Shown: positions 12,714 to 27,987 of the stretch, piece by piece
Position numbering within the stretch: the stretch's first letter is position 1
Layout of the letters: every line of letters starts with the position of its first letter
Assembly (NCBI GenBank): GCA_016196035.1
Contig: JACPYM010000030.1
Span: forward strand, 1 to 62,278
Source of the DNA: Acidobacteriota bacterium
GTDB taxonomy: Bacteria > Acidobacteriota > Blastocatellia > RBC074
Direction: 5' to 3'
Length of the DNA stretch: 62,278 nt
The notes under the pieces: model-generated
What the model was told of the DNA's origin: nothing
The model's database searches: none
The model's input: only the letters and a program-made list of their open reading frames with translations
Made by a program: the position numbers and the translations under genes

Positions 12714-15065
12714 ATGAAGTTAAAGCTGTTAATTACAGTTCTCTATTTGCTGGCGCTCGCCTGGCCAGCCTTGCCTTCATTGCCTTCCCTGCTGAACGTG
12801 CGCGCCGCGCTGTTGCCGCAAGTGCAAACCGCCGATTTATTCTTTGATCGAAATGGCAAGCGCGGCCTCGTGCGCTTCAATCATAAACAGCACGAAGGGC
12901 TGCTCACGCGCGCGCCCAATTTAGCCCATCAGGCGCCGCCGACACTCGCTTGCGTGGGTTGTCATCACACGACACAAAACATATTGAAACGCGAACAGTT
13001 TCAAAAGTGTAGCGATTGCCATCGCGCGCAGGGCTTTCCTGATAACCCTGTGCCCGCCGCGCAAAACGTCCGCAGCGAAGACGACCGTGACATCGAACTC
13101 AACTCCCGCGAAATTTTTCATCGCCTTTGCATCTCTTGTCATCGCGACGAAAAACCGCGCGCCGAAAATGCCACGAAGAAAATTCCGGTCACCTGCAACG
13201 AATGCCACGACCGCAATGCCACCGCGCCGGAAATCGTCGCCTCCAGTTTAATTCCGCCACCAGCCGATGATGCTCCGACAGGCGAAGGCCTTCCTAAGCC
13301 CTTGCCCACTGGCTCTGTCAGCACGCCGGTGGATGCGCCGCAAGGCTATGCTGGGAAATCACGGATTGAGCAGCCTGATCTTAAAGGGGAGCCTGACGCG
13401 AATGCCGTTGCGCGTCCCGATCGCTGGCGCATCAGTTTTCCTGATGATCCACGCCTGAAAAAGGGCGCGTTGAAAAATCCCTATAATCAAAACGTGTTGA
13501 AAGGCGATTATCCGATCTTTGGGCAACACAACTATTTGGTGCTGACGCTGGAAAGCGAATCCATGTTCAATGGCCGCCGCATTCCGCTGCCCAGCAATGT
13601 CAGTTCGGAACGCCCGAACAGCACAGAGTTTTTTGGGCGCGGCGGGCAGGTCTTTTTCAACCAGAACTTCATCACCTCGGTCGAATTCTTTCACGGCGAT
13701 ACGTCCTTCAAACCGGTTGATTACCGTTTCAAATTCACGCCGGTTTTCAATCTGAACCTGCTGCACACGCAGGAGCGCAGCATCGTCAATATCAACCCGG
13801 TGATCGGTGCGAGCCGCTTCGACAGCTATATCGGCTTTCAAGAATTGTTCGGCGAGGCGCGGCTGGGCGATACAACCAAGTTCATTCCCTGGTTGCGCGG
13901 CAAGGGCAACCAAGACGGCAAGAGTCCGCACTTCGACTCGACCTTTATCCGCGCGGGTATTCAGCAATTCAACAGCGACTTTCGCGGCTTCATTTTCAAC
14001 GACTATAACCTCGGTGGCCGCCTCTTTGGCCAGTTCGCCAACAACCGCTATAACTTTAACGCGGCGGCGTTCTACATGCTGGACAAGGACACCAACAGCG
14101 GGTTGAACACGCGCTTTTTCACGCGCCTGGCCAATGATCGGCGCAACGAATGGCGCAACCAGTTGGTCGTGATCGCCAATCTGTACCGGCAAGACACCAA
14201 ATGGAAAGGCTACACCACGCAGTTCAGCTTCCATTACAACGATGACCGGCCCAGCCGTGTGTATGATCAGAATGATTTTCTGGTGCGTCCGGCCTTGATC
14301 GGCACGATCAAAGATCATGGCGTGAAATCGTATTACCTGGGCTTTACCGGCGATGGGCATATCGGCTTGACGAATATCAACCACGCTTTCTATCAAGTGC
14401 TGGGGCGCGACTCATTCAACCCGATTGCGGGGCGCAAAACTGACATCAATGCCCAGATGGCCGCCGTAGAGCTTTCGCGTGACCGCGACTGGCTGCGCTT
14501 CAAAGGTTCGGTGTTTTGGGCTTCGGGTGACAGCAAGCCGTTCGACGGCAAGGCGCGCGGGTTTGACTCGATCCTTGATTTGACTGAATTCGCGGGCGGC
14601 AAATTCAGTTTTTGGAACAGCCAAGCGATTCCGTTTTTGAATACGGGCGTCTTGCTGACCACGCCCGAAAGCCTGGTGCCGAGTTTGCGCAGCAGCAAGA
14701 CGCAGGGCCAATCCAATTTCGTCAATCCTGGCATTTTCATATACAACGCAGGGCTGGAAGCGGAATTGAAACCGAAGCTGCGCGCGATTTTGAATTTGAA
14801 TTATCTGCATTTCCATCACACCGAGCCATTGTCGCAGTTGCTGTTTCAACCCGGCATACGGCGGCCCATTGGCTTGGATTACGGCGTCGGCTTTTTGTAT
14901 CGCCCCTTGTTGAGCGAAAATGTGATCGTCACTGGCGGCTATTCATCGCTGCTGCCCGGCACCGGCTTCAAAGACATCTTCAGCTCCAATTGCGCGGGGC
15001 AAGGCTGCGGCGCGAAACCGCAAATGCTTTATTCGGTTTTTGTGAAGGTGAAGTTTACGTATTGA
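12714..15065 (+). CDS. Tetrahaem cytochrome c fused to an outer-membrane beta-barrel
   Basis: The first ~175 residues after the signal peptide (KLKLLITVLYLLALAWPALP) hold four haem-binding CxxCH sites: CVGCH, CSDCH, CISCH and CNECH, with a preceding FNHKQHEG His motif of class III (c3/c7) cytochromes. A Pro-rich linker (~180-230) follows. The remaining ~550 residues are alternating hydrophobic/polar beta strands with aromatic girdles and a C-terminal strand ending in Phe-Thr-Tyr (VFVKVKFTY), the hallmark of an outer-membrane barrel. Inference: the haem domain plugs or lines the barrel to pass electrons across the outer membrane, as separate proteins do in porin-cytochrome complexes. The frame is open to a TTG at 12690, but the ATG at 12714 fits the signal peptide. 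It is the first gene of a seven-gene block. Confidence 0.85.
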   Translation: MKLKLLITVLYLLALAWPALPSLPSLLNVRAALLPQVQTADLFFDRNGKRGLVRFNHKQHEGLLTRAPNLAHQAPPTLACVGCHHTTQNILKREQFQKCSDCHRAQGFPDNPVPAAQNVRSEDDRDIELNSREIFHRLCISCHRDEKPRAENATKKIPVTCNECHDRNATAPEIVASSLIPPPADDAPTGEGLPKPLPTGSVSTPVDAPQGYAGKSRIEQPDLKGEPDANAVARPDRWRISFPDDPRLKKGALKNPYNQNVLKGDYPIFGQHNYLVLTLESESMFNGRRIPLPSNVSSERPNSTEFFGRGGQVFFNQNFITSVEFFHGDTSFKPVDYRFKFTPVFNLNLLHTQERSIVNINPVIGASRFDSYIGFQELFGEARLGDTTKFIPWLRGKGNQDGKSPHFDSTFIRAGIQQFNSDFRGFIFNDYNLGGRLFGQFANNRYNFNAAAFYMLDKDTNSGLNTRFFTRLANDRRNEWRNQLVVIANLYRQDTKWKGYTTQFSFHYNDDRPSRVYDQNDFLVRPALIGTIKDHGVKSYYLGFTGDGHIGLTNINHAFYQVLGRDSFNPIAGRKTDINAQMAAVELSRDRDWLRFKGSVFWASGDSKPFDGKARGFDSILDLTEFAGGKFSFWNSQAIPFLNTGVLLTTPESLVPSLRSSKTQGQSNFVNPGIFIYNAGLEAELKPKLRAILNLNYLHFHHTEPLSQLLFQPGIRRPIGLDYGVGFLYRPLLSENVIVTGGYSSLLPGTGFKDIFSSNCAGQGCGAKPQMLYSVFVKVKFTY

Positions 15066-15173
15066 CCTGGGTACGCAGCGCTTCCAGCGTGCGGACTCGG
15101 CGGCGGACGTCTTCCTTCCGGCAGAAAAAGGTCTGACGCCGAGTCCGCACGCTGGAAGCGCTGCGTACCCAGG
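15066..15173. repeat. Long perfect inverted repeat (37-bp arms)
   Basis: Bases 15066-15102 are the exact reverse complement of 15137-15173, separated by 34 nt. The arms begin one base after the upstream stop codon. Arm length and lack of a T-run argue against a simple terminator; it resembles a small palindromic mobile element. Confidence 0.9.
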
Positions 15174-27700: not shown

Positions 27701-27987
27701 AGGTCACGCTGATTGTGCGCAGCGATTTGAAAGGCGATCTCAAACTCGGCAACAAGATGAATTTTTATGATTGCCTGGACGCGGGCCGGATCAAGGCGTA
27801 TTTCCGCACGACCATCAAACGCATTGAAGCGGACACGGTCGTCTTGATGGACGCGAAAACCGAGGCGGAAAAAGCCACCGTTCCCTGCGATTTCGTCTTC
27901 GCGTTAATCGGCGGCGACAAACCGACCACCTTTCTCGAAAAGCTGGGGATCGAGATTCTGGGCAAACGCAAAGTACCGCGCGCGTGA
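24712..27987 (+). CDS. FHA / heptahaem cytochrome / ferredoxin / flavoprotein transmembrane chimera
   Basis: One 1091-residue chain contains, in order: an FHA phosphothreonine-binding domain (~20-115; GRLISNDLVLNH, SRTHAG, NLSASNGTLLNG); a membrane helix (~225-248); seven CxxCH haems (CTSCH, CIACH, CLDCH, CYNCH, CATCH, CSKCH, CDTCH; ~283-505); a second helix (WYGWLALLALLPVGGLLFVA, ~563-587); two ferredoxin motifs (CIGCHACVEACP, CMEDTSCQVECP); and a TrxR-like flavoprotein with FAD motif GMGPAGLSA and NAD(P) motif GAGNSAIE. A zinc-ribbon-like insert (CNSCG...CAKCG) interrupts the flavin domain. Topology predicted from the helices: FHA and Fe-S/FAD inside, haems in the periplasm. Expected flow: NAD(P)H to FAD to Fe-S to periplasmic haem, or the reverse. 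The stop lies inside a palindrome. Confidence 0.88.
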   Translation: MASKSRYIIRRKDSEVDDAFLDSEGLTIGRLISNDLVLNHRAVSRTHAGIANAANIPSLAEAAETAATYFLFNLSASNGTLLNGENVENVALFDGDVIQIGPYLLKVNYLDDALALTVEMELKVQPLEKRTALLQLPAGQDGDKTMLIKFPTVAGRPGTAMLSGQGLLTGYLPSLDKQALDLFWDKRKREAGKIEAKSPLHPRFGQKYGKAQFNWRPTFDLRRLWRSAYFVWGTLVTAALAVAAAFAYSNAYAPKPLSTAHAQPLSAASLQQRNLAARSNGNACTSCHTPQAGMLDQCIACHQTKATAARPGFAPAVYIKGHENQGLGCLDCHSEHMGPQNETGLLHYGLCYNCHNGVYRLKQAGQSRQAGDILPIPHGGAVGYVKVKDKGFAPEYWGLSLNKWSQIVARWKAKAPQKFYPTAEVLSRGDSKQQFHNLHMEGLDQPRLCATCHFNEQGEREIQSNYGLHEAPKQACSKCHAEPQAATGVVRGLAKCDTCHQQHGRTSQPVTLAPESETDLQKYLALLSPRAKTVAEFNLKGRAGQARIGSASALRQSGDAPSWRNFGALPWYGWLALLALLPVGGLLFVAADAVRRKFSQPPATEETLAAPKTTRIKLTASQQKQKDEGPLYPRPVVDPLLCIGCHACVEACPHDVLAITADGVAAPVNADQCMEDTSCQVECPTSPKACVVVHTTKIIPDRQVPKRDQQFMTNVPGIYLIGDVSGVPLIKNAINEGAQVIEAVKTELAHEGSASQADYDVAIIGMGPAGLSATVSAKQQGLRYLALEQDQVAATIQNTYGKGKFVFYKPDTVEVRGGLPLFPDPNKKEGNFKEPMLEGWQATLKREGIQINERESCKDLQREDGQFRILTEKGTLKQPAAYTARKVVLAIGNRGTPMLLKAPGEELKVRLQRVGRFCNSCGAASHGEQAFCAKCGEKLPVLNVEESKVQYKLGDPKEFMGKHCTVVGAGNSAIEVAVALTGFERQGDQISFANDAEVTLIVRSDLKGDLKLGNKMNFYDCLDAGRIKAYFRTTIKRIEADTVVLMDAKTEAEKATVPCDFVFALIGGDKPTTFLEKLGIEILGKRKVPRA

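What the first reader, a model, noticed from the sequence alone, without database searches (positions are those of the whole stretch)
12714..27987. Candidate new electron-conduit locus: seven co-directional genes with ~42 haem c sites and chimeric inner-membrane modules
Seen: seven genes on one strand with small gaps or overlaps encode 4, 10, 4, 8, 9, 0 and 7 CxxCH-type sites, an outer-membrane-barrel fusion, a lipoprotein, and two large proteins joining Fe-S or flavin modules to haem modules. Known: extracellular electron transfer in Shewanella (MtrCAB) and Geobacter (porin-cytochrome complexes) uses separate barrel, periplasmic and surface cytochromes fed by CymA/CbcL/ImcH. Inference: this locus covers the whole path from NAD(P)H to the cell surface (or inward), with its own inner-membrane entry proteins. 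I do not recognise this set as a described pathway.
Basis: partly seen in the sequence, partly recalled or inferred. Interest (0 to 1): 0.92.

Follow-up and report, generated by a model that had tools for sequence, protein, structure and literature searches.

The report
Acidobacterial NAD(P)H-to-outer-membrane electron-export gene set
A run of genes in a soil-type bacterium appears to build a switchable wire that carries electrons from the cell's internal fuel NAD(P)H through the inner membrane and a chain of about 44 haems towards the outer membrane, and the same parts, fused in different ways, recur in several classes of the phylum Acidobacteriota; what finally takes the electrons is unknown.

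Summary
In detail: seven co-directional genes with 4, 10, 4, 8, 9, 0 and 7 c-haem sites, far above chance. The A-G order recurs in four other genera; G follows F in 55 of 57 testable named loci; all 34 F-positive genomes among 58 relatives also carry B; in other classes similar modules lie beside B, fused differently, in 10 of 15 genomes. F has two cyclic-nucleotide domains, 16 invariant Cys (four 4Fe-4S) and four invariant His predicting two b haems. G is FHA, seven c haems, two 4Fe-4S and a circularly permuted FAD/NAD(P) reductase. Together they look like a gated NAD(P)H:cytochrome c enzyme spanning the inner membrane, unlike the quinol oxidases of known pathways. An HbpS-like gene (10315-12459, minus) probably belongs. 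Weak points: A models as an AlgE-like barrel, B's location is uncertain, HbpS is not beside A in close relatives, and the acceptor may be a small molecule entering through A. "Extracellular" is only partly supported. New variant of a known kind; interest 0.7.

The parts
10315..12459 (-). H: secreted HbpS-like protein (PF03928, two stretches), divergent from A; start codon uncertain (open to 12603)
   Evidence: Pfam PF03928 E 1.2e-20; HbpS-like gene in 14 of 20 B-bearing stretches (the one in L144 is a 131-aa ORF 7.6 kb from A) and in 14 of 19 stretches tested. Against: not found in the stretches of three of the four relatives with the full A-G order (L033, L034/L108, L036/L052), and in the fourth (L037) it lies beyond G
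12714..15065 (+). A: signal peptide, tetrahaem c domain (aa 50-170), beta-barrel (aa 265-783)
   Evidence: model with 18 strands of 10 residues or more, mean pLDDT only 53.9, barrel strands roughly 65-84; AlgE best match
13506..15062 (+). barrel part of A
15187..19278 (+). B: decahaem c cytochrome (9 CxxCH + 1 CX4CH) with C-terminal LVIVD propeller
   Evidence: PF08309 1.6e-22; ExtM-like 73.5 bits against cut-off 800; 10 haem His and 11 other His at >=95% in 23 sequences
19280..19804 (+). C: tetrahaem cytochrome c3-like, signal peptide
   Evidence: PF02085 6e-9; 4 haem His + 4 other conserved His, 5 sequences
19801..20880 (+). D: octahaem c7-type cytochrome
   Evidence: PF14522 4.5e-14; 8 + 8 conserved His, 5 sequences
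20937..21947 (+). E: nonahaem lipoprotein cytochrome
   Evidence: PF22113 34.6 bits, over its cut-off of 30; lipobox LAAC by eye; 9 + 9 conserved His, 5 sequences
22019..24607 (+). F: 2 x cyclic-nucleotide domain, 4 x 4Fe-4S, predicted di-haem b membrane domain
22034..22891 (+). F: tandem cyclic-nucleotide-binding domains
   Evidence: PF00027 5.4e-21; VIA-align Z 15.8, rmsd 2.3, 128 aligned, to 3cl1
22979..23521 (+). F: ferredoxin-like domain, 16 Cys invariant in 42 sequences
23624..24604 (+). F: b-type membrane domain; H614, H628, H838, H852 invariant (codons at 23858, 23900, 24530, 24572)
24712..27987 (+). G: FHA - TM - 7 c haems - TM - 2 x 4Fe-4S - permuted FAD/NAD(P) reductase
24790..25014 (+). 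G: FHA domain
   Evidence: PF00498 1.5e-12
25471..26391 (+). G: heptahaem domain, taken as periplasmic, between hydrophobic segments aa 228-246 and 569-587
   Evidence: 7 haem His + 7 further invariant His in the domain in 13 sequences; hydropathy
26614..26781 (+). G: 4Fe-4S domain (8 Cys invariant in 13 sequences)
26818..27951 (+). G: flavoprotein reductase, order GD motif - FAD - NAD(P) (circularly permuted)
   Evidence: HMM coordinates; motif positions; YpdA/Bdr closest solved

Best explanation
The set is a regulated electron-export chain. NAD(P)H is oxidised in the cytoplasm by the FAD domain of G; electrons pass over the 4Fe-4S clusters of G and the four 4Fe-4S clusters of F, cross the inner membrane over two b haems held by F (H614/H838 on the cytoplasmic side, H628/H852 on the periplasmic side), and are picked up by the seven periplasmic c haems of G. 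C, D and E carry them over the periplasm to the outer-membrane pair A (tetrahaem-barrel) and B (decahaem propeller), where an acceptor outside the cell, or at the outer membrane, is reduced. The cyclic-nucleotide domains of F and the FHA domain of G gate the flow by second messenger and phosphothreonine. Shown: gene set, motifs, ligand conservation, co-occurrence, modular recombination. Inferred: direction, topology, haem b loading, gating, order of hand-over, place of the last step.
For: 42 c-haem motifs. For C, D and E (5 sequences each) and for the haem domain of G (13 sequences) the number of other conserved His equals the number of haems (4, 8, 9, 7), and for B it is 11 against 10 (23 sequences), which fits six-coordinate electron-transfer haems. 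F: 16 Cys and the four His are invariant in 42 sequences. In an alignment of 23 b domains that includes four separate b-type proteins of other classes at 20-24% identity to the window, the four His are among only 13 invariant columns of 405; 10 of 23 members touch the b561 family PF01292 weakly (best E 0.0016) and 3 touch PF01794. F model mean pLDDT 80, helices at 607-628 and 835-861 carry the His pairs. F-G adjacency 55 of 57. Same A-G order in 4 of the 20 stretches fetched, besides the window. Of 58 relatives, 34 have F and B, 5 B only, 19 neither, none F only (p 4.5e-11 by genome, 0.0026 by genus). Outside the class, 10 of 15 B-positive genomes have cNMP-Fe-S, b-type or haem-FHA modules beside B; in L140, L141 and L147 the FAD reductase is fused to cNMP and Fe-S, followed by the b-type protein, a 10-haem protein, HbpS, A and B, so the proposed order of carriers is mirrored by other fusions.
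Against: No FAD module was found in 9 of 44 F loci with more than 6 kb downstream. F-G is often not near A-E: of 25 loci with 9 kb on both sides only 8 show the A barrel and 4 show B (B can fall outside the 10 kb flank). A's barrel is AlgE-like with about 18 strands, narrower than a 26-strand MtrB (recalled), and the 12 relatives of A from other lineages lack the haem domain. B has a hydrophobic-basic tail in 8 of 23 sequences (by eye), compatible with an inner-membrane anchor. All 32 B-positive genomes tested carry the haem-copper oxidase family PF00115 (the family also holds NO reductases, recalled), so respiration of solids is not an obvious need. HbpS is not beside A in the close relatives. 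The window copy has Gln where most relatives have Glu in the nucleotide-binding cassette (Q106). The Fe-S region of the F model is poor (pLDDT mostly 43-66).
Confidence: 0.5

Rival explanations
1. Soluble-acceptor pathway: the same F-G entry and cytochromes feed B inside the periplasm (or on the inner membrane), and A is a channel that lets a small anion or organic acceptor in, in the manner discussed for ExtI in Geobacter.
For: B's best curated family is ExtM of the selenite/tellurite operon (73.5 bits); A models as an AlgE/OprD-type channel; C-terminal hydrophobic-basic tail on some B; ExtI is a porin-like protein implicated in selenite and tellurite reduction whose deletion left Fe(III) citrate reduction unchanged (PMC5877670, passages).
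Against: ExtM cut-off is 800 bits, not reached; B has at least as many conserved non-motif His as haems (11 against 10), so no open catalytic haem is evident; A carries its own tetrahaem domain in this lineage; E looks like a lipoprotein.
Confidence: 0.27
2. Iron or haem acquisition: the chain is a gated extracellular ferric/haem reductase used for assimilation rather than respiration, with HbpS as haem-binding partner.
For: HbpS-like genes occur in 14 of 20 B-bearing stretches from several classes; all 32 hosts tested carry PF00115; A is channel-like.
Against: More than 40 haems is a costly device for assimilation; no siderophore or ABC uptake family was among the hits of A-G; the HbpS role is inferred from a family name only, and HbpS was not found in the stretches of three of the four closest relatives.
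Confidence: 0.12
3. Inward flow: electrons from an extracellular donor such as Fe(II) enter through B/A and reach NAD(P)+ through G, helped by membrane potential.
For: The same carriers could run in reverse; some hosts are titled Chloracidobacterium, a genus with phototrophs whose electron donors are not settled (recalled).
Against: Reduction of NAD(P)+ from c-type haems is expected to be uphill, and no proton-coupled subunit was recognised in A-G.
Confidence: 0.06
4. Two independent systems (F-G and A-E) that merely lie side by side in this lineage.
For: F-G stands without A-E in many stretches; five relatives have B without F.
Against: All 34 F-positive relatives have B, even when on another contig of a two-contig genome (G021, G025 and G029: F on C1, B on C2); in other classes similar modules are beside B in 10 of 15 B-positive genomes. 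Relatedness of the genomes weakens the statistics (genus-level p 0.0026).
Confidence: 0.05

Closest known systems
Geobacter sulfurreducens extHIJKLMNOPQS cluster (selenite/tellurite; PMC5877670, passages)
   Same: porin-like protein + several multihaem c cytochromes + a lipoprotein cytochrome + an inner-membrane b cytochrome and Fe-S protein in one cluster; B is distantly ExtM-like
   Different: ext has a Rieske protein, rhodanese and bc-type b protein; here 4Fe-4S ferredoxin domains, cyclic-nucleotide and FHA domains, a flavin reductase and HbpS; B has a propeller
Porin-cytochrome complexes Mtr/Mto/Pio and Pcc (PMC4245776, passages)
   Same: barrel plus periplasmic and outer-membrane multihaem cytochromes; Pcc porins predicted at 18-22 strands; one fused multihaem porin (GM18_3465) already reported
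   Different: no Mtr or Pcc family over its cut-off for A or B in Pfam/NCBIfam scans; A fuses only four haems to the barrel; own NAD(P)H entry enzyme
Inner-membrane menaquinol oxidases ImcH, CbcL, CbcBA of Geobacter, CymA of Shewanella (PMC12307469 and PMC6295460, passages; CymA's role partly recalled)
   Different: those draw on menaquinol; F-G has its own Fe-S/FAD/NAD(P) branch. A quinone site on the b domain of F is not excluded
Hmc, Dsr, Qrc and Tmc transmembrane redox complexes of sulfate reducers (NCBIfam hits; features recalled)
   Same: 4Fe-4S, b-type and multihaem c modules across the inner membrane; DsrO is the best NCBIfam hit of F (61 bits against cut-off 200)
   Different: none of these subunits reaches its cut-off in the hits shown; flavin, FHA and cyclic-nucleotide domains built in
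YpdA/Bdr and thioredoxin-reductase-like flavoproteins
   Same: FAD and NAD(P) motifs; closest solved chains 7a76 and 7a7b
   Different: circularly permuted, fused to 4Fe-4S; 136.5 bits against YpdA cut-off 339.9

Membership tests
Porin-cytochrome conduit (Mtr/Pcc) | outer-membrane beta-barrel encoded with the cytochromes | tested here: met
   A model has about 18 strands, low overall pLDDT (53.9), best match AlgE Z 23.8, rmsd 3.2, 346 aligned
Porin-cytochrome conduit (Mtr/Pcc) | further multihaem cytochromes, one of them a lipoprotein, in the cluster | tested here: met
   lipobox of E by eye; cellular location itself not tested
Porin-cytochrome conduit (Mtr/Pcc) | homology to MtrA/MtrB/MtrC or OmbB/OmaB/OmcB | tested here: inconclusive
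   only E passes an MtrC/MtrF domain cut-off (34.6 against 30 bits; A 22 bits, below it); MtrB was not among the 50 rows shown for A, which does not exclude it
[quoted passage not shown]
   needs biochemistry
Geobacter ext selenite/tellurite operon | ExtM equivalog | tested here: not met
   73.5 bits against cut-off 800
Geobacter ext selenite/tellurite operon | Rieske protein and rhodanese in the cluster | tested here: not met
   no Rieske or rhodanese family among A-G at E <= 0.01
CymA/ImcH-type quinol oxidase (NapC/NirT) | NapC/NirT domain | tested here: not met
   no such Pfam hit in A-G at E <= 0.01; only weak NrfH hits on A (16.4 bits) and D (27.6 bits) against 134.2
Di-haem b cytochrome (functional type) | two transmembrane His pairs | tested here: met
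   H614/H628 and H838/H852 invariant in 42 F sequences and in 23 aligned b domains from several classes
Di-haem b cytochrome (functional type) | bound haem b | not testable with these tools
   needs spectroscopy
Cytochrome b561 Pfam family PF01292 | profile match over cut-off | tested here: inconclusive
   10 of 23 members hit weakly, best E 0.0016; the window copy does not at E <= 1
YpdA bacillithiol disulfide reductase | equivalog cut-off and canonical domain order | tested here: not met
   136.5 against 339.9 bits; order GD-FAD-NAD(P)
Soluble multihaem reductase (NrfA-like) | one haem without distal ligand as active site | tested here: inconclusive
   B has 11 conserved other His for 10 haems; only a 34-position match to octahaem nitrite reductase

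The most novel reading that the evidence does not exclude
F-G is a new class of respiratory entry enzyme: a quinone-independent NAD(P)H:multihaem-cytochrome oxidoreductase with built-in second-messenger (cyclic nucleotide) and phosphothreonine switches. With A, B and often HbpS it forms an ancestral, modular extracellular electron-export system of Acidobacteriota, whose domains were repeatedly fused, split and circularly permuted.
Probability: 0.33. Interest if true: 0.88.

Novelty: new variant of a known kind. Interest (0 to 1): 0.7.

Why it matters
The well-studied extracellular electron pathways enter from the quinol pool and come mostly from a few Proteobacteria and Desulfobacterota (recalled, and PMC12307469 passages). 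This set predicts a different entry, from NAD(P)H, with regulatory domains in the electron path, in a phylum abundant in soil. It gives concrete tests: four His for two b haems, fusion order as a map of partners, and a search signature (B + A with cNMP/Fe-S/b modules) for genomes. If right, many soil bacteria that also have oxygen-type oxidases would have an unsuspected electron outlet.

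Tried and rejected
Chance origin of the haem motifs: rejected (shuffles). Rfam: no match in the window at gathering threshold. A first genome-contig scan with F alone found no relative; the alignment A1 gave 78 loci, of which the 73 I mapped (L052-L124) have matches at 41-62% identity and titles of Acidobacteria, Blastocatellia, Pyrinomonadaceae or Chloracidobacterium, except L096, titled Actinomycetota with 'Acidobacteria' in its scaffold name. 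Five weak ones (L125-L129: Planctomycetaceae, Verrucomicrobiales, Kiritimatiellia, an unnamed bacterium, Pirellulaceae; E 3e-13 to 1e-4) were not mapped. That scan needs exact peptide patterns, so it cannot show that F is absent from other phyla; no other phylum was searched otherwise.

PDB search by sequence with the b domain gave only chance hits. MtrB was not among the 50 rows listed for A, which proves nothing. Upstream sequences of A were printed from the window and four loci but no conserved motif was sought in them.

In one search, L082 was dropped because the script assigned no F there; L057 (next partner 423 nt away) and L107 (no FHA/haem part recognised) are the 2 of 57 failures of F-G adjacency. 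The His counts for C, D, E, A and G rest on five sequences each, window included, from related loci; those for B on 23. Of the 15 B-positive genomes outside the class, four stretches without modules end at contig ends (L143 4.5 kb, L145 7.3 kb, L146 4.3 kb, L148 17.6 kb) and L137 (a whole 16-kb contig) has A, B and HbpS but none of those modules. HbpS: 6 of 20 stretches and 5 of 19 lack it; the five misses are three genomes (G019; G031 twice; G023 twice), and for G023 nothing upstream of A was held. No B-negative control was run for the oxidase count.

Papers: searches gave listings; some gave none. I read passages only of PMC8100337, PMC11475568, PMC5877670, PMC12307469, PMC4245776, PMC11748539 and PMC6295460. 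That the set is undescribed rests on these searches of an open-licence library alone.

Full report
What is there. The window is contig C30 of an unnamed 9.59 Mb genome. Its relatives match contigs titled Acidobacteria, Blastocatellia or Chloracidobacterium (for example G038:C100 and QHVH01000009.1, a Blastocatellia contig, have the same length of 348435), so the host is placed in Acidobacteriota, class Blastocatellia, by inference. One of the eight CxxCH in G is a 4Fe-4S motif, so seven remain. Shuffled proteins give almost no such motifs.

The inner-membrane pair. F holds two cyclic-nucleotide domains, a ferredoxin-like region and a membrane domain. In 42 sequences 16 Cys and four membrane His are invariant. 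The His lie as H-x13-H on two helices (607-628 and 835-861 in the model), the spacing known from cytochrome b of the bc1 complex (recalled). With four stand-alone homologues of other classes added, at 20-24% identity to the window, these four His are among 13 invariant columns of 405. Ten of 23 members graze the b561 family. I read this as two b haems, one near each side of the membrane. G starts with an FHA domain, has two hydrophobic segments (228-246, 569-587) around a heptahaem domain, then two 4Fe-4S clusters and a flavin reductase. Its seven haem His are matched by seven further invariant His within that domain in 13 sequences. The reductase is circularly permuted: profile coordinates put the usual C-terminal GD segment (aa 703-747) before the FAD part (from 757) and the NAD(P) part (958-1080). 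The motif order is the same in L056 and L102, while the version in L131, L141 and L147 starts with the FAD motif in the usual way. In several genomes G is two genes, FHA-haem and Fe-S-FAD, cut between its two halves.

The outer part. A is a tetrahaem domain followed by a barrel with about 18 strands, closest to AlgE (Z 23.8, rmsd 3.2, 346 aligned), on a model of low overall confidence. In the 12 sequences from other lineages, A has a different N-terminal domain without haems, and a separate tetrahaem gene is present in many of those loci. B is a decahaem cytochrome with an LVIVD propeller. All ten haem His and eleven others are conserved in 23 sequences from several classes. C, D and E are tetra-, octa- and nonahaem cytochromes with 4, 8 and 9 matching extra His, on five sequences each. 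An HbpS-like, probably secreted protein is encoded divergently from A in the window. HbpS-like genes occur in 14 of 20 B-bearing stretches (one of them only a 131-aa ORF 7.6 kb from A) and in 14 of 19 stretches tested. The five misses are three of the four genomes with the full A-G order (G019, G031, G023; nothing upstream of A was held for G023), and in the fourth (L037) HbpS lies beyond G. So HbpS belongs to the wider set but not to a fixed place, and its membership is less sure than that of A-G.

Conservation. The order A-B-C-D-E-F-G recurs in L033, L034, L036 and L037, four genera besides the window's own, at 63-70% identity where A and B were compared and 49-60% for F and G. Of the 20 stretches fetched, those four are complete, L051 has F, G, an E-like gene, A and B in another arrangement, L040 has two other cytochromes, and the rest show F and/or G without A-E, two of them (L032, L039) on contigs that end in F. 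Among 57 named loci with room downstream, the FHA/haem part of G follows F within 400 nt in 55. Of 25 loci with 9 kb on both sides, 17 have another multihaem gene, 8 the A barrel, 4 B, 10 HbpS. FAD modules are present in 35 of 44.

Co-occurrence. In 58 relatives, F is found in 34 and B in 39; all 34 have both, five have B only (G014, G030, G041, G042, G045), 19 have neither. In G042 the contig with G ends just where F should begin, so its missing F may be an assembly gap. The exact probability is 4.5e-11 by genome and 0.0026 by genus; shared ancestry makes both optimistic. In three two-contig genomes F is on C1 and B on C2, so the link is not only physical. In 297 genomes of the phylum F (E <= 1e-80) is in 16 of the 32 class members listed and in one of the 265 others, there only in part; B (E <= 1e-30) is in 17 and 15.

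Other classes. Around B in those 15 genomes, 10 stretches hold cNMP-Fe-S, b-type or haem-FHA modules. In L140/L131 the order is FAD reductase + two cyclic-nucleotide domains + 4Fe-4S in one protein, a 275-aa b protein, a protein with FHA and ten haems, HbpS, A, B. L141 and L147 are alike. In L150 the FAD reductase, b protein, 10-haem protein and cNMP-Fe-S protein are separate genes on both sides of A-B. That the same parts are joined in different ways is the strongest argument that they work together, and the fusions suggest the order FAD - Fe-S - b haem - c haem.

Mechanism and limits. Most likely NAD(P)H electrons pass through G's flavin and clusters, F's clusters and b haems, G's c haems, then C/D/E to A/B. 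The His counts speak for wires and against an open catalytic haem, though this is not proof. Direction, topology, gating and the acceptor are inferred. The cyclic-nucleotide cassette of the first domain is kept in relatives (FGEMS...PR.AT), with Gln for Glu in the window copy. B could be on the surface or held in the inner membrane: 8 of 23 sequences end in a hydrophobic stretch and basic run (by eye). Pcc porins are also predicted with 18-22 strands and one fused multihaem porin is on record (PMC4245776, passages), so an 18-strand barrel does not exclude a conduit. All 32 B-positive genomes carry PF00115, the haem-copper oxidase family, which also holds NO reductases (recalled); no B-negative control was run, so this only says that the hosts can probably use oxygen.

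Against the known. Geobacter's entry proteins ImcH, CbcL and CbcBA serve menaquinol (PMC12307469, passages); a survey of such families found 19 ImcH and 2 CbcL-type homologues in Acidobacteria (PMC6295460, passages). The Geobacter ext cluster is the nearest in plan (PMC5877670, passages), but its curated ExtM is far from B (73.5 against 800 bits) and no Rieske or rhodanese domain was found in A-G. A survey of Acidobacteriota from wastewater noted multihaem proteins in all its genomes, most of unknown substrate (PMC8100337, passages). I found no paper on this set in the open library. Verdict: a real, conserved, modular electron-transfer system; a new variant of a known kind; extracellular role plausible, not shown.

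Noticed in passing
L130 (G000:C16) 4277-7909, minus: Second F-like + FHA-heptahaem pair in the window's own genome, with no FAD module in the 20-kb stretch; neighbours not identified.
   Followed up: partly
L137 12489-15190, L138 901-2355, L141 18151-19494, L151 9111-10412, L154 960-2345: Proteins of 434-485 aa with four CxxCH plus one longer haem-like site lie near A/B in several lineages; not identified.
   Followed up: no
B genes of L033, L034, L036 and L152-L156: C-terminal hydrophobic segment followed by a basic run in B, absent from the window's B; could be a sorting or anchoring signal.
   Followed up: partly
G003:C163 and G003:C134: Two B homologues in one genome.
   Followed up: no
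G021, G025, G029: F on contig C1 and B on C2 of two-contig genomes, so the set is split over two contigs yet co-retained.
   Followed up: partly
window 24712-27987, about aa 930-950 of G: A zinc-ribbon-like insert (two CxxC pairs) in the reductase of the window and some relatives, absent from others.
   Followed up: no
window 28299-32087, plus: Large outer-membrane protein (PF25183 with carboxypeptidase-regulatory domain) just downstream of G; probably unrelated.
   Followed up: no
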